From: Anaerolineales bacterium
Lineage (GTDB): Bacteria; Chloroflexota; Anaerolineae; Anaerolineales; UBA6663
DNA: 12,959 bases
Assembly: GCA_016789245.1 (NCBI GenBank)
Contig: JAEURM010000015.1
Span: 4,084 to 17,042, forward strand
Direction: 5' to 3'
Below are positions 1 through 12,332 of the stretch, piece by piece. Each line of letters begins with the position of its first letter. Positions within the stretch are counted from its first letter, which is position 1. The translations under genes and the position numbers were made by a program. The notes beneath the pieces were generated by a model. It ran no database searches, was not told where the DNA came from, and saw nothing but the letters and a program-made list of their open reading frames with translations.

Positions 1-120
1 CGTCCGGGGCTGTCCGGCCGGCTGGCCGGTCACCGGCCGGACCCGTGCCGGTCACGTCCGGGAGGCTGTCCGGGTCGATCAGCCACCCGGCGGCCGTCCG
101 CTCACCCGAAACCCGGCCAT
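1..120. other. GC-rich left edge, possible chimeric join
   Basis: By direct count 93 of these 120 bases are G or C, against about 60% in the next 60 bases. All three forward frames and at least one reverse frame are open, as expected for very GC-rich DNA, so open frames say little here. Translated in the frame of the following gene, the segment gives a Pro/Gly/Arg-rich stretch that does not resemble the barrel strands expected upstream of the R-P-E-T-M-G-K motif of the endonuclease IV-like family. A reverse frame reads like GC-rich coding DNA (an acidic, mixed-residue peptide). It may be a foreign piece joined during assembly, or a real recombination junction near base 120-130. Confidence 0.55.
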
Positions 121-541: not shown

Positions 542-546
542 TGCCC

Positions 547-616
547 CGTATTCCGTGTTGCGTATTCCGTAACATGCAATACGCAACACGGAATACGCAA
601 TACGTTTTACGCTTCA
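547..616. repeat. Heptamer-phased palindromic array A
   Basis: Ten consecutive 7-bp units in strict register; nine begin with CG. The first units (CGTATTC, CGTGTTG) are the reverse complements of later ones (GAATACG, CAACACG in shifted register), so the array folds into a perfect 20-bp stem, 547-566 paired with 578-597, around an 11-nt loop. It starts 5 bases after the stop codon of the endonuclease IV-like gene and ends 10 bases before the first aminotransferase start. It shares the units CGCAATA and TGCAATA with the array at 1806-1868. No T-run follows the stem, so it is not a textbook terminator. Confidence 0.9.
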
Positions 617-626
617 CTTATTCCCA

Positions 627-1817
627 ATGCCTTTCACTCCCGCTCACCGCGTTGCCAACTTCGGCACTACTATTTTTAGTGAAATGTCTAAGCTGGCCGT
701 GGAACATCAGGCCGTTAACTTAGGGCAAGGCTTCCCAGATTTCGATGGGCCGGAGGCCGTAAAAGAAGCCGCCCGCGCCGCCATTACGGCCGGACAAAAC
801 CAGTACGCCGTGGGCATTGGCCAGCCCGCTTTGCGGCAAGCCATCGCCGCGCACGCCCAACGTTTTTATCAGCAAGCGGCCAATCCCGAAACAGAAATCA
901 CCATCACCAGTGGCGCAACGGAAACGTTGTTTGCGGCCATTCAGGGCTTGGTGAACCCGGGGGATGAAGTAGTGGTGATTGAGCCATTTTACGATGCGTA
1001 CGTGCCAGATATTACGATGGCGGGCGGTGTGCCGCGCTGTGTGCCTCTGCGCCCAACGGCCAGCGGCGAGTGGTTGCTAGATGGTGATGAACTCCGCGCG
1101 GCGTTTAGTAACCGCACACGGCTGATTTTGTTCAACTCGCCGCACAACCCCACCGGCAAAGTGTTTACGCGGGCTGAGATGGAGCTGATTGCGGCCCTGT
1201 GCCAACAGTGGAACGTGATTGCAGTAACGGATGAAGTGTATGAGCACCTCACCTTTGATGAGGCGGCGCATATCCGTTTGGCCACCTTGCCCGGTATGGC
1301 AGAGCGCACCGTTACCATTAGCAGTTTGGGCAAAACGTTTAGCTTTACGGGCTGGAAGATTGGCTGGAGCATTGCGCCGCCGGATTTAACCAGCGCGGTA
1401 CGGCGCGCGCATCAATGGATAACGTTTGCCACTTCCACGCCCATGCAGGCCGCAGGCGCGGTGGCGCTAGGTTTGGGTAGTGAATTTTTCACCGGCTTTA
1501 GGCAAGAGTTTCAGCAGAAGCGTGATTACGCACTGAGCGTTTTGCGGGAAGTGGGCTTCCGCGTGAGTGTGCCGCGCGGCACGTACTTCATCATGGCCGA
1601 TTTTTCGCCGTTCGGCTTTCAGGGTAATGATGTGGAGTTTGCCAAATGGCTCATCCGTGAAATTGGCGTGGTGGTGATTCCGCCCAGCGTGTTCTTCTCT
1701 GAGGCGCACAAATCCATTGCCCACAACTGGGCGCGGTTTGCCTTTTGCAAAAGGCCAGAAGCTTTAGCTCTTGCGGCCGAAAAACTGCGGCGGTTAGTGG
1801 AACACCGTAGTGCGTAG
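627..1817 (+). CDS. Class I/II PLP aminotransferase, kynurenine/glutamine transaminase K-like (copy 1)
   Basis: A 396-residue fold-type I aminotransferase of full length for the family. The N-terminal N-L-G-Q-G-F-P-D-F segment (31-39) is typical of the kynurenine aminotransferase/cysteine-S-conjugate beta-lyase/methionine aminotransferase group. PLP-site residues are visible: N174 in H-N-P-T-G-K, D202 and Y205 in T-D-E-V-Y-E-H, the Schiff-base lysine K236 in S-S-L-G-K-T-F, and R370 (W-A-R-F-A-F-C), expected to bind the substrate carboxylate. It probably moves amino groups between amino acids and 2-oxo acids in the cytoplasm; the substrate cannot be read from sequence. It is followed 66 bases later by a paralogue in the same orientation. 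The last codons (Arg-Ser-Ala-stop) lie inside the heptamer array at 1806-1868. No convincing Shine-Dalgarno precedes the ATG. Confidence 0.92.
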   Translation: MPFTPAHRVANFGTTIFSEMSKLAVEHQAVNLGQGFPDFDGPEAVKEAARAAITAGQNQYAVGIGQPALRQAIAAHAQRFYQQAANPETEITITSGATETLFAAIQGLVNPGDEVVVIEPFYDAYVPDITMAGGVPRCVPLRPTASGEWLLDGDELRAAFSNRTRLILFNSPHNPTGKVFTRAEMELIAALCQQWNVIAVTDEVYEHLTFDEAAHIRLATLPGMAERTVTISSLGKTFSFTGWKIGWSIAPPDLTSAVRRAHQWITFATSTPMQAAGAVALGLGSEFFTGFRQEFQQKRDYALSVLREVGFRVSVPRGTYFIMADFSPFGFQGNDVEFAKWLIREIGVVVIPPSVFFSEAHKSIAHNWARFAFCKRPEALALAAEKLRRLVEHRSA

Positions 1818-1868
1818 TGCGTGTTCCGTAGTACGCACTACGCACTACGCAATATGCAATAGGTTTCA
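1806..1868. repeat. Heptamer-phased palindromic array B
   Basis: Nine 7-bp units in register, including CGTAGTG twice and its inverted form CGCACTA twice, then CGCAATA and TGCAATA, which also occur in array A. They fold into a perfect 17-bp stem, 1806-1822 with 1833-1849, around a 10-nt loop. The TAG stop of the first aminotransferase (1815-1817) lies inside the second unit, so the array encodes that protein's last three residues. The second aminotransferase starts 15 bases after the array. There is no U-tract after the stem. Confidence 0.9.
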
Positions 1869-1883
1869 AGTTTCACGCCCTCG

Positions 1884-3056
1884 ATGTTCCCCCTCGCGCA
1901 CCGCATCTCCGGTTTTGGCACTAGCATCTTCTCAGAAATGAATCGGTTGGCGGCAGAGTACAACGCCATCAACCTCGCGCAAGGCTTCCCAGATTTTAGC
2001 GGGCCAAGCGCAGTGATTGAAACGGCCAAGGCCGCCCTGCGCGCCGGACAAAACCAGTATTCGCCCATGCCCGGCTTGCCCGTTTTGCGGCAGGCGGTGG
2101 CCGCGCACGCGCAACGGTTCTATCAGCAAGCGGTTGAAGCGGAAAGTAACATCACCATCACCGCCGGCGCGTTGGAAGCGTTGTATTGCTCCTTTGCCGC
2201 CTTCCTCAACCCCGGAGATGAAGTGGTGGTGTTTGAGCCATTCTTTGATTGTTACTTGGCGCACGCGCAAATGATGGGCGCTGTGGTGCGCTTTGTGCCG
2301 CTCCGCCCAACGGCCAGCGGCGAATGGGGGTTTGATGAATCAGAACTCCGCGCGGCGTTCAACAACCACACGCGGCTGTTGGTGCTAAACACGCCGCACA
2401 ACCCCACCGGCAAAGTGTTCACGCGCGCCGAGATGGAATTGATTGCGGAGTTGTGCCAGCAGTGGAACGTGATTGCGGTGACCGATGAAGTGTACGAGCA
2501 CATTGTTTACAACGGCGCGCAACACCTGCGGCTGGCCACTTTCCCCGGCATGGAGGAGCGCACCATCACCATTAGCACGCAGGGCAAGATGTTCAACTTC
2601 ACTGGCTGGCGCGTGGGTTGGGCCATTGCGCCGCCGTTGCTCACGGCGGGTTTGCGGCGCGTGCATCAGTTCACCACGTTTTGCGCGCCCACGCCCCTGC
2701 AAGCCGCCACCGCCAAAGCGTTGGCACTAGATGACGAGTATTTTGAATCGCTCGCCGCAGATTTCCGGCACAAGCGTGATTTTCTGGCGCCCACCGTGCA
2801 AAAATTGGGCTTCCAAGTGAGTGTGCCCAACGCCACTTACTTCCTCATGGCGGATTTTTCGGCGCTAGGCTTTGACGGAGATGATGTGGCGCTCTGCCGC
2901 TGGCTGGCGCGCGAGGCGGGCGTGGTGCTGGTTCCCGCCAGCGCCATGTACAGTGAAGAACACCGTGCGCTAGGCCAACACTGGGTGCGCTTTGCGTATT
3001 GCAAAACAATGGAAACTTTGGAGCAAGCGGTGGAGCGGCTGAGGAAAATGTTTTAG
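1884..3056 (+). CDS. Class I/II PLP aminotransferase, kynurenine/glutamine transaminase K-like (copy 2)
   Basis: A 390-residue paralogue of the preceding gene, alignable end to end. It keeps the family residues: N173 (H-N-P-T-G-K), D201 and the Y of D-E-V-Y-E-H, the PLP lysine K235 and the carboxylate-binding R369 (W-V-R-F-A-Y-C). Around the lysine it reads S-T-Q-G-K-M-F-N-F instead of S-S-L-G-K-T-F-S-F, so a threonine replaces the serine three residues before the lysine and a methionine follows it. Other pocket positions also differ (for example F-F-D-C-Y for F-Y-D-A-Y), which suggests a different amino-acid preference. Residues 170-206 are nearly identical to the first copy although the rest has diverged. 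The gene probably shares a transcript with copy 1 and is closed by the bidirectional terminator at 3132-3170. No clear ribosome-binding site is seen. Confidence 0.92.
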   Translation: MFPLAHRISGFGTSIFSEMNRLAAEYNAINLAQGFPDFSGPSAVIETAKAALRAGQNQYSPMPGLPVLRQAVAAHAQRFYQQAVEAESNITITAGALEALYCSFAAFLNPGDEVVVFEPFFDCYLAHAQMMGAVVRFVPLRPTASGEWGFDESELRAAFNNHTRLLVLNTPHNPTGKVFTRAEMELIAELCQQWNVIAVTDEVYEHIVYNGAQHLRLATFPGMEERTITISTQGKMFNFTGWRVGWAIAPPLLTAGLRRVHQFTTFCAPTPLQAATAKALALDDEYFESLAADFRHKRDFLAPTVQKLGFQVSVPNATYFLMADFSALGFDGDDVALCRWLAREAGVVLVPASAMYSEEHRALGQHWVRFAYCKTMETLEQAVERLRKMF

Positions 3057-3131
3057 CGTATTTCTAACTTGTAGCCTTTCAGGCCAGACCGACGCGGTCT
3101 ATGACAAACATAGAAACCTATCGTTAAACAA

Positions 3132-3170
3132 AAAAGCCCTTCGCTGGCTTGAAGCCAGCGAAGGGCTTTT
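3132..3170. terminator. Bidirectional intrinsic terminator
   Basis: A perfect 17-bp stem (3132-3148 with 3154-3170) and a 5-nt loop, with A-runs and T-runs at the stem ends. It lies between two convergent genes, the second aminotransferase (+) and pnp (-). Read on the minus strand the stem is followed by a run of six T and more T-rich sequence; on the plus strand by four T. It can serve both sides and is stronger for pnp. The remaining spacer (3057-3131) holds only a small 6-bp hairpin at 3086-3100. Confidence 0.9.
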
Positions 3171-3178
3171 ACTAAACC

Positions 3179-5455
3179 TTAGTCTTTCCGCCCGCCCCGG
3201 AAGCTTCCGCGGCCACCGCGGTCACGGTCACCGCCGCCGCGCCGGTCACCACCCCCGCGTCCACCACGGTCACCGCCTCGGCCACCACCACCGCCGCCGC
3301 GCCCACCGCGGTCTGCGGCTTGCGCTTCTTCCAGCGTCCAGCCTTCCAGCACGGCTTGGCGGCTCAAACGCACTTTGCCGCTTTCATCCACCGCCGTCAC
3401 CATCACCGTCAGCTCATCGCCGACTTGGCAAATATCTTCCACCTTGTTCACGCGCTCAGAAGCAAGTTGGGAAATATGCACCATGCCGTCTTGGCCGGGC
3501 GTCAGTTCCACAAACGCGCCGAACGATTCCACGCGCACCACTTTGCCGGTGTAAATCGTGCCGGGCTTAATGGTCTCGGTCAGGCCTTCAATCGCCTCGC
3601 GCGCGCGCTGAGAGCCAGCGCCATCTACACCCGAGATGTACACCGTGCCGTCGTCATCAATATCAATCTTGGTATTGGTATCTTCTTGCAGTTTGCGGAT
3701 GTTCTTGCCGCCCGGGCCAATGATAGCGCCTATCTTTTCCGGATTGACGTGCACCGTGATGATGCGGGGCGCAAACGGTGAAAGTTCCGCGCGCGGGGCC
3801 GGGATGAGGCCCGTCATAAACTCCAGAATTTCACCGCGCGCCTCGCGGGCTTGCGCCAGCGCTTCAGAAAGAATTTGAGTGGTGAGGCCCTTAATCTTGA
3901 TATCCATTTGCAGGGCAGTGATGCCGAGCGCTGTGCCCGCCACCTTGAAATCCATATCGCCCAAGTGGTCTTCAATTCCCTGAATATCCGTCAGCACCGC
4001 GTACTTGCCGCTTCCGCTGTAAATATCCGTCACCAAGCCCATGGCAATGCCGGCCACTGGTGCTTTGATGGGCACACCCGCATCCATCAGCGCCAAAGTA
4101 GAGCCGCAGGTAGACGCCATAGACGTGGAACCATTGGAGGAGAGCACCTCGCTCACCACGCGAATGGTGTACGGAAATTCTTTTTCGTCCGGCAGAACGG
4201 GGACGATGGCGCGTTCGGCCAAAGCCCCGTGGCCCACCTCGCGGCGGCTTTGCCCACGCAGAGGCCGCACTTCACCCACGCTGAACGGTGGGAAGTTGTA
4301 GTGATGCAGATAGCGCTTCTCGTTTTCCGGCGAGAGCGTATCCAGTTCTTGTTTATCACCCGGCGTGCCGAGGGTGGCCAAGCTGAGAGCTTGCGTTTCA
4401 CCGCGCGTGAACAAGCCAGAGCCGTGCGCACGCGGGCTGAGGCCTACCTCACCCCACAACGGGCGAATTTGTTTGCCGTTCCGGCCATCCGGGCGCACGC
4501 CCTTGTTCAGGATGCTATCGCGCACCGCTTCCTGCTCCAAATCATGCAAAATGCCAAAGAGCGTGCTGGCTTTTACGTCCGCATTTTCTTTGTACGCCGT
4601 CATCACATCATTCTGAATTACATCGCGCACAGCGGCCCGGCCTTGCTTATCAGCCGGTTCGGCTACGTGGGCCATGCGGCCGGCCACAATCTCACGCACC
4701 TTGGCCACCAAATCCGCCGGATAGCCAAACTTGGGGTAATCCGTTTTCTTGGGCTTGCCCGCCAACTTTTGCAGTTCTTCCTGCAAATCAATCAGCGGCT
4801 GAATGGCCTTGTGGCCAAACTCCAGCGCGGCCACCATTGTTTCCTCGGGCACTTCGTTGGCCCCGCACTCCACCATCACAATGGCATTGCGCGTGCCCGC
4901 TAACCGCAAATCCAAATCACTGTGGTCCATATCCTCAAAAGAGGGGTTGGTGACGAACTCGCCATCAATCAGGCCCACGCGCACCGCGCCCACCGGCCCA
5001 TCAAACGGCGCAATGCCAAACGGCACATCGCTCACAGTTAGGGCGGCGGAGGCGGCCACAATCGCCAGCACATCCGGCTGATGCACTTGATCAACCGAAA
5101 GCGGCGTAACAATGATTTGCACGTCATTGCGGAAATCATCGGGGAATAGCGGGCGGATGGGCCGGTCAATCAGCCGCGCGGTGAGGATGGCGCTTTCACC
5201 CGGGCGGCCTTCGCGCCGGAAGAAACTACCGGGGATGCGGCCTGCGGCGTACAACTTCTCTTCGTACTCCACGCTCAGCGGGAAGAAATCAATGCCCTCG
5301 CGCGGCGAACCAGACATGGTGGCCGCGGCTAGAATCATCGTATCGCCCGTGCGGATGGTCACCGCGCCGCCCGCGAGACCGGCCAGTTTGCCGGTTTCGA
5401 GCGTGAGGGTGCTACCCGCAAATTCAATACTGACTTGTTTTACGTTGGATGACAT
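3179..5455 (-). CDS. pnp: Polyribonucleotide nucleotidyltransferase (PNPase)
   Basis: A 758-residue PNPase, which degrades RNA 3'-to-5' by phosphorolysis and is usually a trimer in the cytoplasm. Domains in order: first RNase PH domain (about 10-145), all-alpha linker, second and catalytic RNase PH domain (about 320-550) with [12 protein letters not shown] and [10 protein letters not shown] motifs and the conserved acidic D-H-L-G-D-M-D-F-K at 496-503, KH domain with I-I-G-P-G-G-K-N-I (578-586), and S1 domain (about 630-700). It then carries an extra 44-residue tail (715-758) made almost only of Gly, Arg and Asp with repeated RGG. The start is set by a strong Shine-Dalgarno (AAGGAG, 10 bases upstream). 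It lies downstream of rpsO in the classical order. A leader hairpin at 5479-5511 could serve autoregulation. Confidence 0.98.
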
Positions 5456-5465
5456 GGGTTTAAAA

Positions 5466-5471
5466 CTCCTT
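5466..5471 (-). promoter_or_regulatory. Shine-Dalgarno site of pnp
   Basis: Read on the minus strand, AAGGAG sits 10 bases before the ATG. It is one of only two strong ribosome-binding sites in the window (the other is rpsO) and it fixes the pnp start. Confidence 0.8.
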
Positions 5472-5478
5472 ATATGCC

Positions 5479-5511
5479 GGGCGTACGCTCAACGTAATTA
5501 GGCGTAGGCCC
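5479..5511 (-). promoter_or_regulatory. pnp leader hairpin
   Basis: Inverted repeat of 10 bp with one mismatch (5479-5488 with 5502-5511) located just upstream of the pnp Shine-Dalgarno. In Escherichia coli the pnp leader forms a stem cut by RNase III, and PNPase then represses its own mRNA. A similar role here is inference from position only. Confidence 0.45.
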
Positions 5512-5529
5512 CAAATGACCCGGCGCTAA

Positions 5530-5594
5530 GGTTAGGGACTGGAGATTGGTGACAACGGGCCTCAGCCCGTTGAACCAGTATCCAATTCCCAACC
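5530..5594. repeat. Nested fold-back element in the rpsO-pnp spacer (array D)
   Basis: An outer imperfect inverted repeat (5530-5550 with 5574-5594; 16 of 21 positions match) encloses an inner perfect 8-bp stem (5553-5560 with 5565-5572, loop CTCA). The whole 65 bases can fold as one long hairpin. The inner CAACGGGC/GCCCGTTG stem looks like a dispersed REP-type hairpin. The outer arms are made of GGAGATTGG-like words resembling those of the other arrays, but strict phasing is not kept. Confidence 0.7.
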
Positions 5595-5611
5595 GCCATG
5601 CGCGGGGCTGA

Positions 5612-5662
5612 GAAAATCAGTAAAGAAAACGAGTAGATGGAAGAACCAGCCCATCTACTCGT
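5612..5662 (-). terminator. Intrinsic terminator downstream of rpsO
   Basis: A perfect 12-bp stem (5629-5640 with 5651-5662, 10-nt loop) begins 12 bases after the rpsO stop. On the minus strand it is followed by a T-rich stretch starting TTTTCTTTA. It would end or attenuate rpsO transcription before pnp, so pnp may depend partly on read-through or on its own promoter. An mRNA-processing stem is an alternative. Confidence 0.7.
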
Positions 5663-5674
5663 CTTCTCATTTCA

Positions 5675-5950
5675 CTATTTTGTGCGGCGCAGGCCGAGCT
5701 TGGCAATCAACTGCTCATAGGCCTGTGGGTTTTGCTTACTCAGGTAAGCAAGGTGGCGGCGACGCGCACCCACCATTTTGAGCAAACCCCGGCGCGAGGC
5801 TTGGTCACCTTTGTGCGCCTTCAGGTGCTCGGTGAGATATTTAATGCGCTTCGTCAGAATGGCCACCTGCACTTCCGGCGAGCCGGTGTCGCTATCGTGC
5901 CGGTGATGATCCGAGATAATCTGTTGTTTGGCGTTCTTATCTAAAGTCAT
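5675..5950 (-). CDS. rpsO: 30S ribosomal protein S15
   Basis: A 91-residue S15, normal length for the family. It binds the central domain of 16S rRNA early in small-subunit assembly. Diagnostic stretches are [11 protein letters not shown] (about 18-28), [14 protein letters not shown] (about 36-49), [18 protein letters not shown] (about 53-70) and a basic C-terminus. The start is supported by a strong Shine-Dalgarno (GGAGG, 9 bases upstream). An overlapping ATG seven bases upstream is in another frame. The promoter is at 6038-6066. The gene precedes pnp as in many bacteria, with a terminator-like stem directly after it. An S15 leader often mediates autoregulation; the 80-base leader here has only weak visible structure. 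Confidence 0.98.
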
Positions 5951-6037
5951 GACTCATGCCCTCCTCAGGCAAGTCGCCCAGCGCCGAGTGTTTCATTCCA
6001 CCAAGCGCGGGCCTAGTCGGTAAATTTTGCGGACGGA

Positions 6038-6066
6038 ATTATAGCGTGGAGCGGGGGTGAAGTCTA
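6038..6066 (-). promoter_or_regulatory. Sigma-70-type promoter of rpsO
   Basis: On the minus strand a perfect -10 box TATAAT (6038-6043) is preceded at 17 bp by TAGACT (6061-6066; four of six matches to TTGACA). Transcription would start near 6030, giving an untranslated leader of about 80 bases before rpsO. Confidence 0.75.
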
Positions 6067-6084
6067 GGATGGAAGAAAATTCGA

Positions 6085-6126
6085 GGAAAGGAAGGAAAGA
6101 AGGGTTTCCTTCCTTTCCCTTCTTTC
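6085..6126 (-). terminator. Purine/pyrimidine fold-back with two mutually exclusive stems
   Basis: Just after the HEAT-repeat gene stop (6132) lies a perfect 14-bp stem (6085-6098 with 6105-6118) and a competing perfect 10-bp stem (6095-6104 with 6117-6126). One strand is almost pure purine from about 6068 to 6104 and pyrimidine after that. On the minus strand the larger stem is followed by AATTTTCTT, so it could act as a terminator before the rpsO promoter. The build from short GGAA/GAAA words resembles the palindromic arrays elsewhere. Confidence 0.65.
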
Positions 6127-6131
6127 TGCTT

Positions 6132-6929
6132 TTAGCTCCGCATCATCTTCACCAACTCTGCCTGCTCAGCGGCGGGCAGGGCTTTGAGCGTGGCGCGCAA
6201 AATGGTGTGCGTGTGATGGTTAGACCGGCGGGCGTGCTCACGCAAAAAACGCGTCATGGTGTTCAGGTCACGCGGCGCGAGGCCGTTCAGGGCCGCAATC
6301 ACCGCCTGCCGCACGCTCGGGTCGCTTTCGGTCATCAGGCCGCGCAAAATATCCAACGCCGAGGGCACATCATCCCACTGGCGCACTTTGGCCAAAGCCG
6401 CAATCACCATCACGCCAAAGTAACGCGCCCATTTGTTGGGTTGTTTTAGCCACTGCCGCGCACGGTATAAATGCCCGGGCGGGTCAGCGGGCAGTAGCGG
6501 GCTTAGGGCCAGCTCCGCCACTTCGTTCGCTGTGGTGGAGCTTTCTAACTCCGGAACCCAACTATCAATCAGCGCCAATGCTTCAGCAGGCAAGCGGAGC
6601 GCCACTAGGCCTAACAATTCCACCGCAATCCGCCGCTCCTCGCGAGAGCCTTTGGCCCACAAATGTTTGGCGGTATCAATAGCTTCGGCAGGTGCTTTCT
6701 GCGCCGGTTTGCGCAGAGCAGTGAGGATGGCGCGCACCACCGGCGGCGGCGTTTTAAACGTGGGCGTAGGTGCGGTGCGCTCAGCCAGCTTGGGGCTAAA
6801 CCGGTGAGAGCGGTCAGCGTAATCATCCAGCACGCGGTGAACGGCGGCCGCACACTCCGCTGGATTCACAGAAAGCCGCACGGCAATTTCAGCGGCCTGC
6901 GTCCGGAGTTGGGTGGGATCTATCGGCAT
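6132..6929 (-). CDS. HEAT-repeat protein, possibly of the AlkD-like DNA-glycosylase superfamily
   Basis: A 265-residue, mostly alpha-helical soluble protein with no signal peptide or membrane segment. After a polar N-terminal 60 residues come repeated helical pairs rich in Ala/Leu. L-W-A-K-G-S-R-E-E-R-R-I-A-V-E-L-L (90-106), R-Q-W-L-K-Q-P-N-K-W-A-R-Y-F-G-V (158-173) and D-P-S-V-R-Q-A-V-I-A-A-L (203-214) resemble the helices of AlkD-type DNA alkylation-repair HEAT proteins. However, the Trp/Asp pair expected near S-W-V-P-E-L-E-S-S-T-T-A-N-E (123-136) is not convincingly present, so glycosylase activity is doubtful. The start at 6929 is preferred because the 16-residue extension upstream would be encoded by the repeat array 6930-6981. 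There is no Shine-Dalgarno; the array itself supplies the CAATG start context. A generic protein-interaction scaffold is an alternative. Confidence 0.7.
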   Translation of the reverse strand: MPIDPTQLRTQAAEIAVRLSVNPAECAAAVHRVLDDYADRSHRFSPKLAERTAPTPTFKTPPPVVRAILTALRKPAQKAPAEAIDTAKHLWAKGSREERRIAVELLGLVALRLPAEALALIDSWVPELESSTTANEVAELALSPLLPADPPGHLYRARQWLKQPNKWARYFGVMVIAALAKVRQWDDVPSALDILRGLMTESDPSVRQAVIAALNGLAPRDLNTMTRFLREHARRSNHHTHTILRATLKALPAAEQAELVKMMRS

Positions 6930-6981
6930 TGAGTGATTGAGTGATTGAGTGATTGGCGCAATCGCCAAATCGCCCAATCAC
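6930..6981. repeat. Octamer-phased palindromic array C
   Basis: Six 8-bp units in register fill the whole 48-base gap between two genes. Read in gene direction there are three GATT-type units (such as GATTGGGC) and then three CAATCACT units, their inverted counterparts. GTGATTGG (6949-6956) pairs perfectly with CCAATCAC (6974-6981). The TGA stop of the acetyltransferase begins at the first unit and the next CAAT provides the AT of the ATG of the HEAT-repeat gene. Confidence 0.88.
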
Positions 6982-7571
6982 ACATTCGGTTGAAGTTTTT
7001 CTTCTAGCCGCGCTTTCACAACAGGCCACTCACGCGCCAAAATGCTGTAGTACACGGAACTGCGGCGGTAGCCGTCCGGCATGATGATGTGCTCCCGGAG
7101 CACGCCCTCCCGCGCCGCGCCCAACCGTTCAATGGCGCGTTGTGAGCGCTCGTTGCGCAAATCGGTTTTGATTTGCACGCGGGCTACCCCGAGTTCTTCA
7201 AACGCGTGCGTGAGCAGAAGCAATTTGCATTCCGTGTTCACCGGCGTACGCTGGTGAGCGGGCGCGTACCATGTGCCGCCAATCTCTAGCGCGTTGTTCT
7301 GCGGCTGAATATCCATGTAACGCGTACTGCCCACCGCCCGCCCGCTGGCCAAGTGAATCACAGCAAACACCAAATCAGTGCCCCGCGCCTGCCGCGCAAG
7401 AATCTCGCGCACCCACGCCAACATTTTTTCTTGGGTGGTTACAACGCCATACGGCATCCAGCGCCAAATGGTTTCATCCGCGCCGGCCACCGCCAAATCG
7501 GGCGCGTGGCTTTCTGCCAACGGCTCTAAGCGCACATGTTGGCCAGTGAGGGTGAGAGGTTGAACGTTCAT
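6978..7571 (-). CDS. GNAT N-acetyltransferase, RimJ/RimL type
   Basis: A 197-residue GCN5-related acetyltransferase, normal length for the RimJ/RimL-like (Acetyltransf_3) group, which transfers acetyl from acetyl-CoA to a protein N-terminus, amino acid or small amine. Visible features are the N-terminal L-x-G-x-x-V-R-L-E-P-L strand (7-18), the V-G-S-T-R-Y strand (80-85), E-I-G-G-T-W-Y (96-102) and the conserved C-terminal D-L-R-N-E-R-S-Q-R-A-I-E-R-L-G-A (137-152), whose Asn and Ser are the usual cofactor-side residues. Then comes G-V-L-R-E-H and the Y-Y-S-I-L strand (174-178). The substrate is unknown. It lies 51 bases downstream of proS, across an inverted repeat (7579-7618), and its stop codon touches array C. 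The ATG at 7571 has no clear Shine-Dalgarno. Confidence 0.9.
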   Translation of the reverse strand: MNVQPLTLTGQHVRLEPLAESHAPDLAVAGADETIWRWMPYGVVTTQEKMLAWVREILARQARGTDLVFAVIHLASGRAVGSTRYMDIQPQNNALEIGGTWYAPAHQRTPVNTECKLLLLTHAFEELGVARVQIKTDLRNERSQRAIERLGAAREGVLREHIIMPDGYRRSSVYYSILAREWPVVKARLEEKLQPNV

Positions 7572-7578
7572 CGTATTT

Positions 7579-7618
7579 GTAGAGACGCGCTGTATAAGCG
7601 AAACGACTGCGTTTCTAC
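7579..7618. repeat. Inverted repeat between proS and the acetyltransferase gene
   Basis: GTAGAGACGC (7579-7588) and GCGTTTCTAC (7609-7618) are inverted with one mismatch, 20 bases apart, starting four bases from the proS stop codon. GTAGAGACGC-type ends are familiar from dispersed bacterial intergenic repeats. No unit phasing or T-run is seen. Confidence 0.6.
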
Positions 7619-7622
7619 GGAT

Positions 7623-9062
7623 TTAATACGCCCGCGCGAAGATGACTTTTTGCGTGGCTGGTTTGCCGGTGAGCACGCAAACGCCCTCGCCGCCTTCTTG
7701 TTCCAGCGGCACACAGCGGATGGTGGCCTTAGTTTCTTCTTTCACCTTGGCTTCATCCTCGCGGCTTCCGGCCCACCACACATGCGCCCAGCCGTTCTCC
7801 ACCACTTGCTTGAAATCCGCATAATTTTCAGGCGAGTGCGTGTTGGTCTTACGGAATGTGAGCGCGCGCTCAAACAGCCCGGCTTGTACTTCCATTAATT
7901 TCTCGGCCACTTGGTCAGCAATGCCAGTTTGCGGCACAAAGCTTTTGCCCTCTTTGCCCGGCTTATCGCGCCGTGCCAACGCCACTGTGCCTTTTTCCAC
8001 ATCCTTTGGCCCCACTTCCATGCGGAGCGGCACGCCGCGCAGTTCCCAATCATTGAACTTGAAGCCCGGGCTCACCGTATCCCGCTCATCCACTTTCACG
8101 CGGATATCAGCGGCCAGCAAATCCATTTTTAAGCGGCTCACTGCTTCCAACACTGGGCCTTTTTCGGCGTCATTCTTATAAATCGGCACCATCACCACTT
8201 GCCACGGCGCTAATTTAGGCGGCAAGATGAGGCCCTGGTCATCGCCGTGCGTCATGATGATGGCCCCAATGATGCGCGTGGATAAGCCCCAAGATGTTGT
8301 CCAGCAAAACTGTTGCGCGTTGTTTTGGTCAACGTATTGAATGTTGAACGCTTTGGCAAAGTTCTGGCCGAGGTTGTGTGACGTGCCAGATTGCAAGGCT
8401 TTGGTATCGCCCATCATCGCTTCAATCGTGTAGGAACGAAGTGCGCCGGCAAACTTTTCGCTCTCGGTTTTCATACCCTTCACCACCGGAATGGCCGCAT
8501 CATTCATGGCAAAGTCCACGTACACATCTAACATTTGGCGCGTTTCGGCTTCCGCTTCTTCATACGTGGCGTGCGCGGTGTGGCCTTCTTGCCACCAAAA
8601 TTCTGCCGTGCGCAAAAACAGTTTAGTGCGCAATTCCCACCGCACCACGCTATTCCACAAGTTAATCAGCACCGGCAAATCACGGTAGCTCTTAATCCAC
8701 TTGGCATACGTGTGGCCGATGATGGTTTCAGACGTAGGCCGCACCACCAGCGGCTCTTCTAATTCTTCGCCGCCGCCCACCGTTACCACGGCCAACTCTG
8801 GTGAAAAGCCTTCCACGTGCTCCTTCTCTCTATCTAAGAAGGATTTGGGGATGAACATGGGGAAACCGGCGTTGAGGTGGCCGGTGGCCTTAAAGCGCCG
8901 GTCTAGCGCCTGCTGGATGTTTTCCCACAGCGTCCAGCCGTACGGCTTCACAATCATGCAACCGCGCACGGGGGCGTAATCGGCCATATCGGCGCGGAGC
9001 ACCAGTTGGTTGTACCACTCGCTAAAATCTTCCGCGCGGGTGGGTAATTTAGTATCAGACAT
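7623..9062 (-). CDS. proS: Prolyl-tRNA synthetase, type 3 (archaeal/eukaryote-like)
   Basis: A 479-residue class II synthetase that charges tRNA-Pro with proline, of the short type lacking the bacterial editing insertion. Motif 2 region: R-P-T-S-E (108-112), R-W-E-x-R-T-K-x-F-L-R-T-x-E-F (141-155) and W-Q-E-G-H-T-A-H (157-164). Motif 3: S-T-R-I-I-G-A-I-I-M-T-H-G-D-D-x-G-L-I-L-P-P (261-282). The anticodon-binding domain follows (about 286-385, G-V-P-L-R-M-E-V-G-P-K-D). The protein ends F-A-R-A-Y, the C-terminal tyrosine typical of this type. The zinc knuckle seems degraded: A431 and D436 stand where cysteines are expected, and of the last pair only C462 remains (T465 replaces the other). The start at 9062 is chosen because the family begins about here; the 24 residues upstream run through the octamer repeat. 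Confidence 0.96.
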   Translation of the reverse strand: MSDTKLPTRAEDFSEWYNQLVLRADMADYAPVRGCMIVKPYGWTLWENIQQALDRRFKATGHLNAGFPMFIPKSFLDREKEHVEGFSPELAVVTVGGGEELEEPLVVRPTSETIIGHTYAKWIKSYRDLPVLINLWNSVVRWELRTKLFLRTAEFWWQEGHTAHATYEEAEAETRQMLDVYVDFAMNDAAIPVVKGMKTESEKFAGALRSYTIEAMMGDTKALQSGTSHNLGQNFAKAFNIQYVDQNNAQQFCWTTSWGLSTRIIGAIIMTHGDDQGLILPPKLAPWQVVMVPIYKNDAEKGPVLEAVSRLKMDLLAADIRVKVDERDTVSPGFKFNDWELRGVPLRMEVGPKDVEKGTVALARRDKPGKEGKSFVPQTGIADQVAEKLMEVQAGLFERALTFRKTNTHSPENYADFKQVVENGWAHVWWAGSREDEAKVKEETKATIRCVPLEQEGGEGVCVLTGKPATQKVIFARAY

Positions 9063-9080
9063 TTTATAGAACGCTCCAGA

Positions 9081-9104
9081 GGAGAATTGGAGGATTAGAG
9101 AATT
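9081..9104. repeat. Octamer half-array E1 in the proS leader
   Basis: Three adjacent 8-bp units, GGAGAATT, GGAGGATT and AGAGAATT, lie 18 bases upstream of the proS start. They are inverted counterparts of the CTAATTCT/CCAATTCT units at 9336-9359, about 230 bases away. Confidence 0.8.
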
Positions 9105-9227
9105 TACAAACTCAGTCCACAGGCTTTGGCTCACATTGATTGAGCCAGAGATTCTTCGCGCCCAACGGTTTTACAAATTTGAGCCTGTTCATTCGCACTC
9201 AGAAAGACAGGCCTTACGGATTGGACT

Positions 9228-9290
9228 GTCACTCCCGCGAAAGCGGGAGTCCACGGGCGGCTTATGGATACCCGCTTTCGCGGGTATGAC
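9228..9290. repeat. REP-type double hairpin
   Basis: Two hairpins with 8-bp stems and 4-nt loops (9231-9238/9243-9250, loop GAAA; 9268-9275/9280-9287, loop TTTC) sit head to head. The outer 26-base arms are inverted copies matching at 22 positions, and all four differences are compensatory, keeping each stem paired. This is the widespread CCCGCGAAAGCGGG-type REP family, whose chance translation gives the familiar P-R-K-R-E-S ... I-P-A-F-A-G-M-T peptide. Such elements are moved by REP-associated tyrosine transposases elsewhere in a genome; none is in this window. Confidence 0.92.
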
Positions 9291-9335
9291 GCTCATCGGG
9301 ATGATGGCCTGTACAAAGTGAGATTCTTAGGTCTA

Positions 9336-9359
9336 CTAATTCTCCAATTCTCTAATTCT
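9336..9359. repeat. Octamer half-array E2 over the phosphotransferase stop codon
   Basis: Three 8-bp units, CTAATTCT, CCAATTCT and CTAATTCT. The TAG stop of the phosphotransferase gene (minus strand, 9352-9354) is inside the third unit, so the array provides the stop and the codon before it. Confidence 0.82.
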
Positions 9360-10446
9360 CAATGTATAAAACACCCCGCAAGCGCCGCCGCGCGGCTTCG
9401 AGCACGGGCATGAGCCAAATATCACGGAAGGCCGTTTCATGATTGGCAAAATCTTCTTGCGTGGCATTGGCGGCCCAGTTCAACATTTCCTGCGTAAAAC
9501 ACCACATCAGCGCGTGGTCTAGCACTTCAGACCATTCAGCATCAGTGAGTTTTAGGCCCACGCGCAGGGCCATTTCATCGCGATAAATTTCAAACAGCCG
9601 TGCGGGCGCAATCGGCAAATCCGTCCGCTCCCAACGGCAGGCGTTAATAAAGGCCACCAAATCCACCACGCCCGGCCCCACACTCGCCAACTGCCAATCA
9701 TACACCGCCACTTCATCCTCTTCCATCAAGTTGATGTTGCCCGGATGAAAATCACCGTGCAAAAGCGTGGCCGGGAACTTCCGTAACTTGGCCGCCATGG
9801 GTTCCACTTGCGTGAGCAATAAGCCCAAACCGTTCAACACTTCAGTAGAGCCGGTGATAAGTGGATGGCGGTTATCGACCATCATCTTTTCCATCGCCCC
9901 CACCGCGGCCAACACGTAAATTTCGTAATCACTGGTGAGGGGGCGGGCCAGCCAGGTATAAACGGCCAAGTCATCGGCCAAGCCCCAAAAGCGTTCATGG
10001 ATGCCGCACAACGCCCGCACCGCGCGCTCATAATGCGCGGCCTGCCACGGAGCCATATCTTGCTCCACCGCTTCCAAAATCAGCCACGCGCCAGAAGCAT
10101 CCGCCGCAATGAGGGCGGGCGTTTGCACCGGGAGTTGGGAGGCGAGGGAACGGTACACGCCCATTTCTCGCCGGCCGCCACTGGCCAAACCGGCGCGTGA
10201 GGTGCCACGCGGCTCTTTCACCACGCAATTCACGTTAAGGGAACGGCCCCGCATTTGCCCGCCCGCCATGCTCCCCGCCACGTAATCCACCCGCAAGCCG
10301 CGCACCGCCGAGGGCAAAATCGATTCGGGCGTACGCGGCAGTGCAACTTCCGAGTAAGCTTTGACGATTAAGGATGAATCGCCAAAATACCGGCGTAAGC
10401 CAGCCGTTAGTTGAGCCGAGGAAAAAGGCCACAGGATTCCGGTCAT
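9352..10446 (-). CDS. APH/choline kinase-type phosphotransferase
   Basis: A 364-residue protein with the aminoglycoside phosphotransferase/choline-kinase fold. The N-lobe has the likely ATP-binding lysine K77 (V-V-K-E). The C-lobe shows the Brenner-type catalytic loop H-G-D-F-H-P-G-N (230-237; D232 as catalytic base, N237 as metal ligand) and the metal-binding V-Y-D-W (D250) that replaces the DFG of protein kinases. A helical C-terminal region follows. The substrate could be an aminoglycoside, a sugar, an amino alcohol or a small metabolite; nothing in the sequence decides. Its ATG overlaps the stop of the DGHHR gene (ATGA, 4 bases), so the two are translationally coupled. This association argues for a housekeeping or unknown pathway rather than acquired antibiotic resistance. 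The stop codon is embedded in half-array E2. Confidence 0.9.
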   Translation of the reverse strand: MTGILWPFSSAQLTAGLRRYFGDSSLIVKAYSEVALPRTPESILPSAVRGLRVDYVAGSMAGGQMRGRSLNVNCVVKEPRGTSRAGLASGGRREMGVYRSLASQLPVQTPALIAADASGAWLILEAVEQDMAPWQAAHYERAVRALCGIHERFWGLADDLAVYTWLARPLTSDYEIYVLAAVGAMEKMMVDNRHPLITGSTEVLNGLGLLLTQVEPMAAKLRKFPATLLHGDFHPGNINLMEEDEVAVYDWQLASVGPGVVDLVAFINACRWERTDLPIAPARLFEIYRDEMALRVGLKLTDAEWSEVLDHALMWCFTQEMLNWAANATQEDFANHETAFRDIWLMPVLEAARRRLRGVLYIEN

Positions 10447-11333
10447 TCTTTCAACTCTTCAGTGGGGTTGGCTTGCCCGGCAAAGTAGGCCCGCAAAAAT
10501 TCTTCGGCGGCCTGCCCCGGCTCCACCAAATGGGCTTGGCCCTGCGCCACCAAATAGTGGCGATGGTCTAACACCCACAAATAAAAGTCCGCTTCGGTGC
10601 GGCCCGTAAAAGCCGCCAAAATTTCCGATTCACGGATGACGTTCATGATGGGCAAGTAAACGGTATCATACCAATGCGCTACGGCTTCTTCATCCGCCAC
10701 ATCGCGCTGAAACTCTAAGCCCATAAAGTAGCGGTGTACCGCAATATGTTCCAACATGCGTTCATAGCCGCCTAAAATCGTCACTGCCACACGCGCATCT
10801 GGCCGCAAACGGTCTAAGTTGGTGCGCTCTAAAAATTCGGCGCGCGCGCCCAGCACTTCCAAATCATCCGGGTTAATTTCAGCCGTTAGCGGCACCCGCA
10901 CCGCGCACTCGCGCACTTCGGCTTCAATGGCTTCTTGGCCCTTCTCCCGTGCCACCGAAACGCGGTGATGCCCATCCACCACAAAATATACTTCACCTAC
11001 TTTGTACAGCAAAATGGGCGGCAGGCTAATATCTTGATACCACGCGCGCGTTACTTTCTGCCAACGCTCGGCCATAAAATCCTGTTTGGGTAAAAAGGCG
11101 CGGTCAAAATCGCGGTAACGGTCAACGCTCCCCACAATTTGCGCAATGGAGACGGTGCGCACGCCACGGTAAATGGGGCCGCCAATGTGTAACTTCTCCC
11201 GCACCGCCTCAAAGGCCAGCAAATCATTCGGTTGGCCGGTGAGAAAGGCGAGGAGATTGCGAAATAAAGCTTTTAGCCGCGCGGAGGCAAAATCGGCCTG
11301 CGTTTTCCAACTCAGATTGGGATCTTCAGACAT
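10443..11333 (-). CDS. ParB/sulfiredoxin-fold-like protein with DGHHR motif, function unknown
   Basis: A 296-residue soluble protein. The central part carries I-V-G-S-V-D-R-Y-R-D-F-D-R-A-F-L-P (66-82), L-P-P-I-L-L-Y-K-V-G-E-V-Y-F-V (104-118) and D-G-H-H-R-V-S-V-A-R-E-K-G (120-132). This pattern resembles the ParB N-terminal/sulfiredoxin-like fold, where a D-G-x-H-R or G-x-x-R loop binds nucleotide phosphates (CTP in ParB, ATP in sulfiredoxin). No HTH motif typical of true ParB is evident, so chromosome partitioning is unlikely. The C-terminal 150 residues are not recognised. The start at 11333 overlaps the metallophosphoesterase stop by 8 bases (ATGTCTGA); an alternative ATG at 11345 would add four residues. 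It lies between a phosphoesterase and a phosphotransferase, which suggests phosphate or nucleotide chemistry; that is inference. Confidence 0.75.
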   Translation of the reverse strand: MSEDPNLSWKTQADFASARLKALFRNLLAFLTGQPNDLLAFEAVREKLHIGGPIYRGVRTVSIAQIVGSVDRYRDFDRAFLPKQDFMAERWQKVTRAWYQDISLPPILLYKVGEVYFVVDGHHRVSVAREKGQEAIEAEVRECAVRVPLTAEINPDDLEVLGARAEFLERTNLDRLRPDARVAVTILGGYERMLEHIAVHRYFMGLEFQRDVADEEAVAHWYDTVYLPIMNVIRESEILAAFTGRTEADFYLWVLDHRHYLVAQGQAHLVEPGQAAEEFLRAYFAGQANPTEELKE

Positions 11334-11976
11334 AGTTTTTACCAAATTCTATTAACCGATACGGATACACATTTAATACCTGCGTGTCTTTGTAGCGCGT
11401 GGCCGTCACGGCATCATTGCGATAGACGTGCGAGTGGCCGTGGAGCAAATATTTGGGCCGGAAGCGATCCATCAGCGTGCAGAACGCTTCAAAGCCGGTG
11501 TGAGCAAAATCGCCGCTTTCATGAATGCCGCGCGGCGGTGCGTGGGCAATCAGAATATCCAAAAAGCGCCCGTGCCGCACGCGGTTGGTCAACAGCGCGG
11601 GTGAAAGGTTGAGCAGGCGGGCATTCATTTCCGCTTGCGTGAACTGGTGCGGGCCAACGTTATAGCGGATGGAGCCGCCCAGCCCGGCCACCAGCGCGGA
11701 AGTTCCGTTGGCCGTGATTTTTAATACTTGGTTTTCAAGGCTCTCACACCCTTCCGCTCGGTCAATAATGCGGCCATCGCTCAAGTACTGGGAAGGTTTA
11801 TCATGATTACCGTGCACGTAATACAACGGTTTGCCCAAAATCGTCACCATGAATTCCAGATAGAAAAACGGCAAATCGCCACAACCCAAAATCACATCCA
11901 CATCGCCAAACCGGTCTTTAATTTCCGGGCGATAGAGCGATTCAACCACTTCGTCACTGAGGGCGAGGATTTTCAC
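11326..11976 (-). CDS. Calcineurin-like metallophosphoesterase
   Basis: A 216-residue single-domain metallophosphoesterase. Motifs in order: S-D-E-V (D8), G-C-G-D-L-P (D34), G-N-H-D (57-59), A-H-A-P-P (H145) and H-G-H-S-H (179-183). These are the usual two-metal ligands, except that the first motif is D-x-V instead of the normal D-x-H. The substrate may be a phosphodiester, nucleotide or phosphoprotein; unresolved. The start is GTG at 11976, the only possible start because an in-frame TAA lies two codons upstream. The gene follows the MazG-like gene after 47 bases filled mainly by array F and overlaps the DGHHR gene downstream, making it the head of a compact three-gene unit. Confidence 0.9.
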   Translation of the reverse strand: MKILALSDEVVESLYRPEIKDRFGDVDVILGCGDLPFFYLEFMVTILGKPLYYVHGNHDKPSQYLSDGRIIDRAEGCESLENQVLKITANGTSALVAGLGGSIRYNVGPHQFTQAEMNARLLNLSPALLTNRVRHGRFLDILIAHAPPRGIHESGDFAHTGFEAFCTLMDRFRPKYLLHGHSHVYRNDAVTATRYKDTQVLNVYPYRLIEFGKNYV

Positions 11977-11983
11977 GGTTTAG

Positions 11984-12032
11984 TTGGTGGTTATTAGTGA
12001 TTGGGAAATTAAATAACCAATGACTAATAACT
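11984..12032. repeat. Heptamer-phased palindromic array F
   Basis: Seven 7-bp units in register: three (TTGGTGG, TTATTAG, TGATTGG), a central GAAATTA, then three inverted ones (AATAACC, AATGACT, AATAACT). The stem 11990-12004 with 12017-12031 has 14 of 15 pairs. The TAG stop of the MazG-like gene (minus strand, 12024-12026) lies inside the array, and the metallophosphoesterase GTG start is 7 bases beyond it. Confidence 0.9.
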
Positions 12033-12332
12033 TTCTTTGGGCCAGTCACGTTGATAATTGCGCCGCAATTTTTCAAGAATGGCCTGCTCTAAATCAATAT
12101 TGGTGAGGCTGGCCAGTTGGAGCAAGTATAAGGCTACATCAGCCAACTCACCGGCGAGTTTAGCGTTATCAGCAGAGTCTCGCCACTGATAGTGCTCCAG
12201 CACTTCGGCGGCTTCCACGGCCAGCGAGGCCGCAATGTTGCGAGGCGTTTGCGGGCGCGCGCTCTCCGGTGCATACCAACCTTTAGCGGCCACAAAGCGG
12301 TTCATTTCAGCGGTGAGTTCGGAGAGAGTCAT
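12024..12332 (-). CDS. MazG-like nucleotide pyrophosphohydrolase (dCTPase/RS21-C6 type)
   Basis: A 102-residue all-alpha NTP pyrophosphohydrolase-like protein of the small MazG-like/RS21-C6 group, which hydrolyses (d)NTPs to monophosphates and pyrophosphate to clean the nucleotide pool. The metal-binding pattern is visible: E40-x-x-E43 in A-V-E-A-A-E-V-L-E-H-Y-Q-W and E62-x-x-D65 in G-E-L-A-D-V-A-L-Y-L-L. The P-R-N-I-A-A-S-L motif (30-37) and the C-terminal R-x-K/R-x-x-N-Y region also fit. The start at 12332 (M-T-L-S-E-L) gives the standard length; longer in-frame starts run back into the hydrolase gene and add unrelated residues. It lies 11 bases after the alpha/beta hydrolase stop, probably co-transcribed. 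Its last two codons and stop lie in array F. Confidence 0.88.
   Translation of the reverse strand: MTLSELTAEMNRFVAAKGWYAPESARPQTPRNIAASLAVEAAEVLEHYQWRDSADNAKLAGELADVALYLLQLASLTNIDLEQAILEKLRRNYQRDWPKESY

What the first reader, a model, noticed from the sequence alone, without database searches (positions are those of the whole stretch)
547..12032. A family of 7/8-bp-phased fold-back arrays placed on gene ends
Sites 547-616, 1806-1868, 6930-6981 and 11984-12032, and the split site 9081-9104/9336-9359, share one architecture. Units of exactly 7 or 8 bp run in one orientation, then the same or similar units run inverted, giving a long hairpin. Unit sequences differ between most sites, so they are not copies of one mobile repeat. 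The stop codon of the upstream gene falls inside or at the edge of the array in four of five sites and 5 bases before it in the other. Tandem heptamer repeats (STRR) are known from cyanobacteria, but the orientation switch at the centre and the link to stop codons go beyond that. Possible explanations are template-switch synthesis of short words, a gene-end mark that stabilises or terminates mRNA, or a mobile element class with free unit sequence.
Basis: partly seen in the sequence, partly recalled or inferred. Interest (0 to 1): 0.82.

Follow-up and report, generated by a model that had tools for sequence, protein, structure and literature searches.

The report
Swappable repeat hairpins behind bacterial genes
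Short gaps between neighbouring genes in this uncultured Chloroflexi-like bacterium hold long hairpins built from 7- or 8-letter words, a kind known from cyanobacteria, and in related bacteria the same gap often holds a hairpin made of quite different words.

Summary
Four of five sites have 7- or 8-bp phasing beyond shuffles; the fifth (11984-12032) is marginal in phase (P 0.047) but a clear hairpin. The stop-codon statement is exact. No genome is held for the window, so I sampled relatives. Three samples drawn from seven genomes show an excess of intergenic repeats at 7 and 8 bp; G023 and G048 do not. Strictly defined phased fold-backs (17 in 631 gaps) all lie between genes of the same direction, 15 nearer the upstream stop; arrays as such show no such bias. 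Orthologous gaps in one genus hold hairpins of unrelated words, unphased palindromes, or nothing. Many hairpins fold better than the same words in random order. Papers describe cyanobacterial 7-bp STRR hairpins between genes and wholesale exchange of heptamer hairpins in a Nostoc intron, so the orientation switch is not new. Best reading: STRR-type hairpins in Chloroflexota, working like REP elements as exchangeable post-stop hairpins. Function is inferred; there are no RNA data. New variant of a known kind.

The parts
546..604 (+). Site 1: 7-bp phased fold-back (CGTATTC/CGTGTTG words, then inverted), 5 bases behind the stop of the AP-endonuclease-like gene
1806..1861 (+). Site 2: 7-bp phased fold-back (CGTAGTG words, then inverted); stop TAG 1815-1817 of the first aminotransferase gene inside
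6928..6981 (-). Site 3: 8-bp phased fold-back (GAGTGATT words and inverted, with AATCGCC words); stop TGA 6978-6980 of the GNAT gene inside
11980..12032 (-). Site 4: hairpin with weak 7-bp phase; stop TAG 12024-12026 of the MazG-like gene inside
   Evidence: (phase P 0.047)
9336..9360 (-). Site 5, arm at the end of the APH-like gene (AATTCTCC 8-bp words); stop TAG 9352-9354 inside
9081..9104 (-). Site 5, second arm, before the ProRS gene
   Evidence: 94% complementary to the first arm, 237 nt away
9228..9290 (.). Inverted pair (26-nt arms, 85% complementary) between the arms of site 5; REP-like by look only
6085..6118 (-). Further fold-back, best period 9, 13 bp behind the stop of the gene 6132-6929; not in the finding
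   Evidence: phase significance not tested

Best explanation
The sites are STRR-type (short tandemly repeated repetitive) hairpins: degenerate 7- or 8-bp words, tandem in one orientation and then inverted, sitting just behind or across the stop codon of the upstream gene in gaps between genes of the same direction. They most likely work like REP elements: a hairpin in the joint mRNA behind an upstream reading frame, protecting its 3' end and perhaps pausing or partly ending transcription, without a U-tract. They most likely grow and change by copying slippage in 7- or 8-nt steps plus strand switching that writes an inverted copy, and because the fold rather than the sequence counts, a hairpin can be replaced by another of unrelated words. 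Shown: phase, fold, placement, different words at orthologous gaps, arrangement beyond word content. Inferred: the RNA-level role, slippage and strand switching, and selection for the hairpin.
For: Phase peaks at 7 and 8 in three samples. 17 of 17 phased fold-backs in tandem gaps against 82 of 128 unphased (P 0.0015), 15 of 17 nearer the stop (P 0.002), median 8 bp from it. 41 of 80 phased spacers fold better than the same blocks in random order and 27 of 80 better than blocks permuted within halves, 4 expected. Orthologous gaps keep a hairpin while the words differ: ProRS gap 11 of 12 and grpE-like gap 11 of 14 species with arms scoring 9 or more, against a base rate of 64 of 148; median longest common stretch between species 6 nt. 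Same kind of hairpin, with transcript stability, coupling or termination suggested, in cyanobacteria (PMC2670836, passages).
Against: No RNA data. The other two fold-back loci (7 of 12, 4 of 10) are near the base rate, and control A, chosen for lack of a hairpin in G005, has one in 5 of 9 species, so keeping of the hairpin at a given gap is shown at two loci only, without correction for relatedness. In the L127 locus 5 of 16 other species have gaps of 40 bp or less. Placement near the stop may only reflect keeping clear of the next ribosome-binding site. Against slippage: neighbouring units in the ACTG family are no more alike than permuted ones (27 of 145 against 30.2; only lag 2 is raised, P 0.022). 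The first order test was null.
Confidence: 0.5

Rival explanations
1. Neutral by-product: slippage and strand switching throw up phased palindromes, which survive where they harm least, in gaps between co-directional genes, away from promoters and ribosome-binding sites. They do nothing.
For: Depletion in divergent gaps (4 of 99, P 0.04); hairpin occupancy at the base rate in two of four loci and in control A; empty gaps in some species.
Against: Hairpins of unrelated words above base rate at the ProRS and grpE-like gaps; folding better than permuted blocks, although inverted copying alone could give that.
Confidence: 0.27
2. A mobile element class (REP, MITE or similar) in which each word family is one element spread by a transposase.
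For: One ACTG-type array gives 92 matches in genome G005. In G102 an orthologous gap of 639 bp (L222) contains a Y1 transposase reading frame. Unphased palindromes that look mobile occupy the same gaps. Phased hairpins also lie inside longer repeated elements in G005 (by eye).
Against: No long near-identical second copy: best others 46 bp at 89%, 34 bp at 97%, 65 bp at 79% (40 of 53 candidates scored). Y1 transposases do not follow phasing: none found in G011 and G001, which are phased; 5 in G023, which is not (drafts, one family only). 28 of 325 pairs of ACTG arrays share a 10-mer in their 60-bp flanks (no null computed).
Confidence: 0.15
3. Ordinary intrinsic transcription terminators.
For: Hairpins behind stop codons with strong folds.
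Against: 1 of 17 phased fold-backs is followed by a U-tract against 20 of 128 unphased hairpins, a difference that is not significant (P 0.47); none of the 17 lies in a convergent gap, where 42 of 128 unphased hairpins lie.
Confidence: 0.08

Closest known systems
Cyanobacterial STRR hairpins, e.g. between hupS and hupL (PMC2670836, passages)
   Same: Usually 7-bp repeats between genes that can form a hairpin; [quoted passage not shown] function unknown
   Different: Cyanobacteria; in the passages seen no 8-bp units and no genome-wide placement or exchange is described
Nostoc trnL intron P6b stem, Class I TDNGATT and Class II NNTGAGT (PMC4476775, passages)
   Same: Stem paired by 7-nt repeat motifs; two unrelated word classes with similar fold; several independent replacements at the same place
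   Different: One intron stem, not gaps behind genes; two word classes only
Geobacter metallireducens tandem heptamers and octamers (PMC2700814, passages, mostly supplement legends)
   Same: Units MTYCTGA (7), GTTGCTYN and TWGTTGAY (8) in tandem, several on both strands
   Different: Read there as regulator-binding sites; conserved words within one genome
TAACTGA heptamer repeats of Beggiatoaceae (PMC4679880, abstract and passages)
   Same: Intergenic 7-bp direct repeats, some overlapping the upstream stop codon
   Different: One word, mostly just upstream of start codons, one indirect repeat only
REP/BIME elements and RAYT transposases (PMC3733652, passages; PMC2817692, listing only)
   Same: Extragenic palindromes near genes; GTAG REPs often supply the stop codon TAG; GTAG repeats are reported from Chloroflexi
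   Different: REPs share family sequence with a tagged end; no unit phase in what I read

Membership tests
STRR | Tandem degenerate 7-bp units between genes | tested here: met
   sites 1 and 2 clear, site 4 marginal; sites 3 and 5 have 8-bp units
STRR | Ability to form a hairpin | tested here: met
   many arrays elsewhere are one-way (22 of 26)
STRR | Same unit words, or common origin with cyanobacterial STRRs | not tested
   no cyanobacterial genome was searched
REP/BIME | Family-wide palindrome sequence with tagged end | tested here: not met
   words differ between sites and between orthologous gaps; GTAG or CGTC tags were not searched for as such
REP/BIME | Presence of a Y1 (RAYT-type) transposase with the repeats | tested here: not met
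   none found in G011 and G001 (phased), 5 in G023 (not phased); draft genomes
REP/BIME | Effect on mRNA 3' end or stability | not testable with these tools
   needs RNA data
Intrinsic terminator | Hairpin followed by a U-tract | tested here: not met
   1 of 17 phased fold-backs
MITE | Shared ends and near-identical dispersed copies | tested here: inconclusive
   no long near-identical second copy of one array in G005; flank sharing without null; target duplications not tested systematically

The most novel reading that the evidence does not exclude
Some Chloroflexota keep a hairpin slot behind genes inside operons in which the fold and a 7- or 8-nt word length are kept but the words are free, and a replication-coupled process writes new words as tandem plus inverted copies, so that unrelated hairpins replace one another at the same slot within a genus.
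Probability: 0.3. Interest if true: 0.75.

Novelty: new variant of a known kind. Interest (0 to 1): 0.55.

Why it matters
It extends STRR-type hairpins to Chloroflexota and gives a natural experiment: at the same gene end many species carry hairpins of unrelated sequence. That makes two old questions testable: what the 7-bp repeat hairpins of cyanobacteria do, and why intergenic repeats favour units of 7 and 8 nt. It also warns that sequence-based searches will miss elements whose fold, not sequence, is kept.

Tried and rejected
Census in the window's own genome: not possible. Rfam: no match at gathering score. Polarity of G-rich against C-rich arms relative to transcription: not significant (10 against 6 of 17). 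Flank and unit-order test on single runs: 9 of 68 arrays with an inverted copy at P 0.05 (3.4 expected), order part null; runs often span both arms, so I replaced it by the block test, whose shuffles also break unphased hairpins lying in the same gap (for example in the two control A spacers it includes). The 10-bp peak in G005 is largely one repeated element that holds a phased hairpin (by eye) and is not used as support. Core-versus-variable positions in ACTG units (first four 0.91-0.99 conserved, last three 0.85 or less): the search pattern favours ACTG and variants may be inherited, so not used as proof of constraint.

Rows dropped and limits: the 55 rows include one run of N (L107). For one search, gaps over 300 bp and loci without the same next gene were left out: ProRS L139, L141, L144; GTACACAG locus L222, L229, L230; grpE-like locus L244; L127 locus L267; control A L282; control B 12 of 18 loci. 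Control A was given 15 of its 18 loci. L231 (31% identical) and L150 (early stop in the reading frame) were kept. The base rate was measured with 20 bp of gene on each side, the orthologous gaps with 12 and 3 bp. The 17 fold-backs include the ProRS gap of both G005 and G068 and one that looks like an unphased palindrome, so they are not 17 independent cases. Samples: 158 kb G011, 400 kb G005, 139.6 kb G068, 33 kb G101, 17 kb G091, 400 kb G090, 200 kb each G023 and G048, 17 kb L001. Genes were called with my own simple caller; starts are uncertain. The names ProRS, PNPase, S15, GrpE and DnaK are recalled from the sequences, no family search was made for them; the other names come.
Full report
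What is there. The window is 12,959 bases of an Anaerolineae-like bacterium: the closest prolyl-tRNA synthetase matches found are 82% (L001, Anaerolineales bacterium UBA6663) and 84% (G011). No whole genome is held for it. The five sites exist as described. Against shuffles of each spacer, 7/8-bp phase reaches the smallest possible P in sites 1, 2, 3 and 5 and is marginal at site 4 (P 0.047), where the hairpin is clear. Site 5 is not one hairpin: its arms are 237 nt apart with another inverted pair between them. My first, stricter detector found only sites 1 and 2 (2 against a mean of 0.1 in 20 shuffles). A further fold-back with best period 9 lies at 6085-6118.

More than local chance. In samples of relatives I called genes and counted exact 6-mer repeats by distance in intergenic gaps. 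G005 (224 gaps): distance 7 gives 159 against 11.5 in shuffles, distance 8 gives 113 against 12.2. G011 with L001 (114 gaps): 113 against 4.9 and 37 against 4.5. Distances 4, 5, 6, 11, 12 and 13 are at most about 2.2 times the shuffles. Distance 9 is 29 against 9.6 and 24 against 4.9, distance 10 is 90 against 12.4 and 94 against 7.5, in G005 largely through one repeated element. In one search G090 shows a weaker and less clean pattern (7: 49 against 6.6; 8: 27 against 10.8; 9: 53 against 11.4; also 5: 25 against 5.6). G023 and G048 show no excess at 7 or 8 (1 and 3; 6 and 3), though distance 14 is raised in both (28 against 3.0; 14 against 4.6) and 23 in G023. Among the loci, 37 Chloroflexi loci peak at 7 (154 against 15), 36 acidobacterial loci weakly (41 against 14), 6 rokubacterial loci not (2 against 4); 79 of 80 loci were given. 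The pattern belongs to some lineages and not others.

Placement. Periodic runs scoring 10 or more occur in 68 of 697 gaps of the G005-genus sample, G090 and G011/L001 (0.6 in shuffles): 57 of 510 tandem, 7 of 88 convergent, 4 of 99 divergent gaps (P 0.04 for divergent by gap); in G023 and G048 in 1 of 188. In tandem gaps 31 of 57 are nearer the stop and 25 nearer the start; 17 overlap the stop and 10 the start. So arrays as such are not gene-end marks. Strict fold-backs are: 145 of 631 gaps hold a strong inverted repeat (2 in shuffles), 17 of them phased. All 17 are tandem, against 82 of 128 unphased (P 0.0015), and 15 of 17 are nearer the stop (P 0.002), median 8 bp from the stop and 26 bp from the next start; one of 17 has a U-tract. 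Keeping clear of the next ribosome-binding site could produce part of this bias.

Arrangement. For 80 phased spacers, four window sites included, the real sequence folds better at P 0.05 than dinucleotide shuffles in 50, than the same 7/8-bp blocks in random order in 41, and than blocks permuted within each half in 27 (4 expected). Window sites 1 and 2 pass the last test (P 0.008, 0.033), sites 3 and 4 do not (0.124, 0.091). An earlier flank test was weak and its order part null. So the inverted arm is more than a by-product of word content, by copying or by selection.

Orthologous gaps of the window (read by eye). Between the APH-like gene and ProRS the window has 8-bp AATTCTCC words, G011 GATTTTCG/AATCGAAA words and L001 7-bp GGCGTCG words. 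Behind GNAT the window has GAGTGATT words, G011 9-bp TCAGCGCTC words, L001 only a short overlap region. At MazG-MPE the window has a fold-back, L012 another one, G011 none, and L001, L073 and L075 only a short gap. The window's APH-like and MazG-like proteins end in extra residues encoded by the array where relatives stop earlier.

Orthologous gaps in one genus. In the 18 genomes of the G005 genus I followed four fold-back gaps and two control gaps. Behind ProRS, species carry CAGTGAT, AATTGCC, GTTTCAA, GTATCTC or TATCAGG words, or unphased palindromes of the CATTGCGAG and GTAGGGGCGGGG types, or almost nothing; the grpE-like gap behaves alike. Over the four loci, in 60 gaps of species other than G005, 35 have arms scoring 9 or more, 33 fold with z -2.5 or lower and 22 are phased at P 0.02; control A gives 6, 7 and 2 of 13, control B 1, 0 and 0 of 5. 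The longest common stretch between species has median 6 nt at the four loci and control A and 9 at control B. For gaps of 40-150 bp, against a base rate of 64 of 148, ProRS (11 of 12) and the grpE-like gap (11 of 14) are high; the other two (7 of 12, 4 of 10) and the controls (5 of 9, 1 of 5) are not. Relatedness was not corrected for. Between the close pair G005 and G068 one gap of 42 compared shows complete replacement of words, one differs by 14 nt, and one fold-back is nearly unchanged (by eye).

Source. One ACTG-type array gives 92 matches in G005 with no long near-identical second copy. Of 26 distinct arrays among 30 loci fetched, 22 are one-way by a strict core count. Y1 transposases do not follow the phasing: none found in G011, G001 and G048; 5, 7, 4, 6 and 5 matches in G005, G068, G090, G102 and G023. 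One of those in G102 lies inside the 639-bp gap of L222. I prefer in-place generation by slippage and strand switching to transposition, but neighbouring units in the ACTG family are not more alike than permuted ones, so this step is inference.

Print. PMC2670836 (passages): STRR sequences, usually of 7-bp repeats, can form hairpins and lie between hupS and hupL in several cyanobacteria; function unknown, with transcript stability, translation coupling or termination suggested. PMC4476775 (passages): the Nostoc trnL P6b stem is paired by 7-nt repeats of two classes, with several independent replacements. PMC2700814 (passages, mostly legends): tandem 7- and 8-mers, some on both strands, in Geobacter. 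PMC4679880 (abstract and passages): TAACTGA repeats, and the view, cited there, that heptamers are commonest and may reflect polymerase contact. PMC3733652 (passages): GTAG REPs, also in Chloroflexi, often supply a stop codon. PMC12306157, PMC4060949 and PMC4853749 (passages) and PMC13289151 (abstract) gave background only. In searches of the open library I saw no description of phased fold-backs in Chloroflexota; I judged listings and abstracts, and most subscription papers are not held.

Verdict. A new variant of a known kind: STRR-type hairpins that work, I infer, like REP elements without being members of that family.

Noticed in passing
window 9336-9360 and 12024-12041: The APH-like and MazG-like proteins end in extra residues encoded by the array, while relatives stop earlier: arrays seem to have taken over these stop codons.
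   Followed up: partly
window 1-120: The first 100 bases have 80% G+C against about 50-60% further on, and the first gene is cut there: possibly a chimeric contig end.
   Followed up: no
window 627-3056: Two neighbouring class I/II aminotransferase genes are separated by site 2.
   Followed up: no
L222 (G102), gap of 639 bp: An orthologous gap contains a Y1 transposase reading frame with inverted sequences on both sides.
   Followed up: partly
L113-L132 (G005), several gaps listed: A repeated element with ends like TAGC...GCTA carries a hairpin of 10-bp phased words (by eye).
   Followed up: no
L286, L287, L291, L292, L295 (control B gap): A shared promoter-like stretch around GTAGAATAGGAAA is kept in the gap while no strong hairpin is present in most of them (by eye).
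   Followed up: no
L194-L213 (G023, G048): Repeats at distance 14, and in G023 also 23, are raised although 7 and 8 are not.
   Followed up: no
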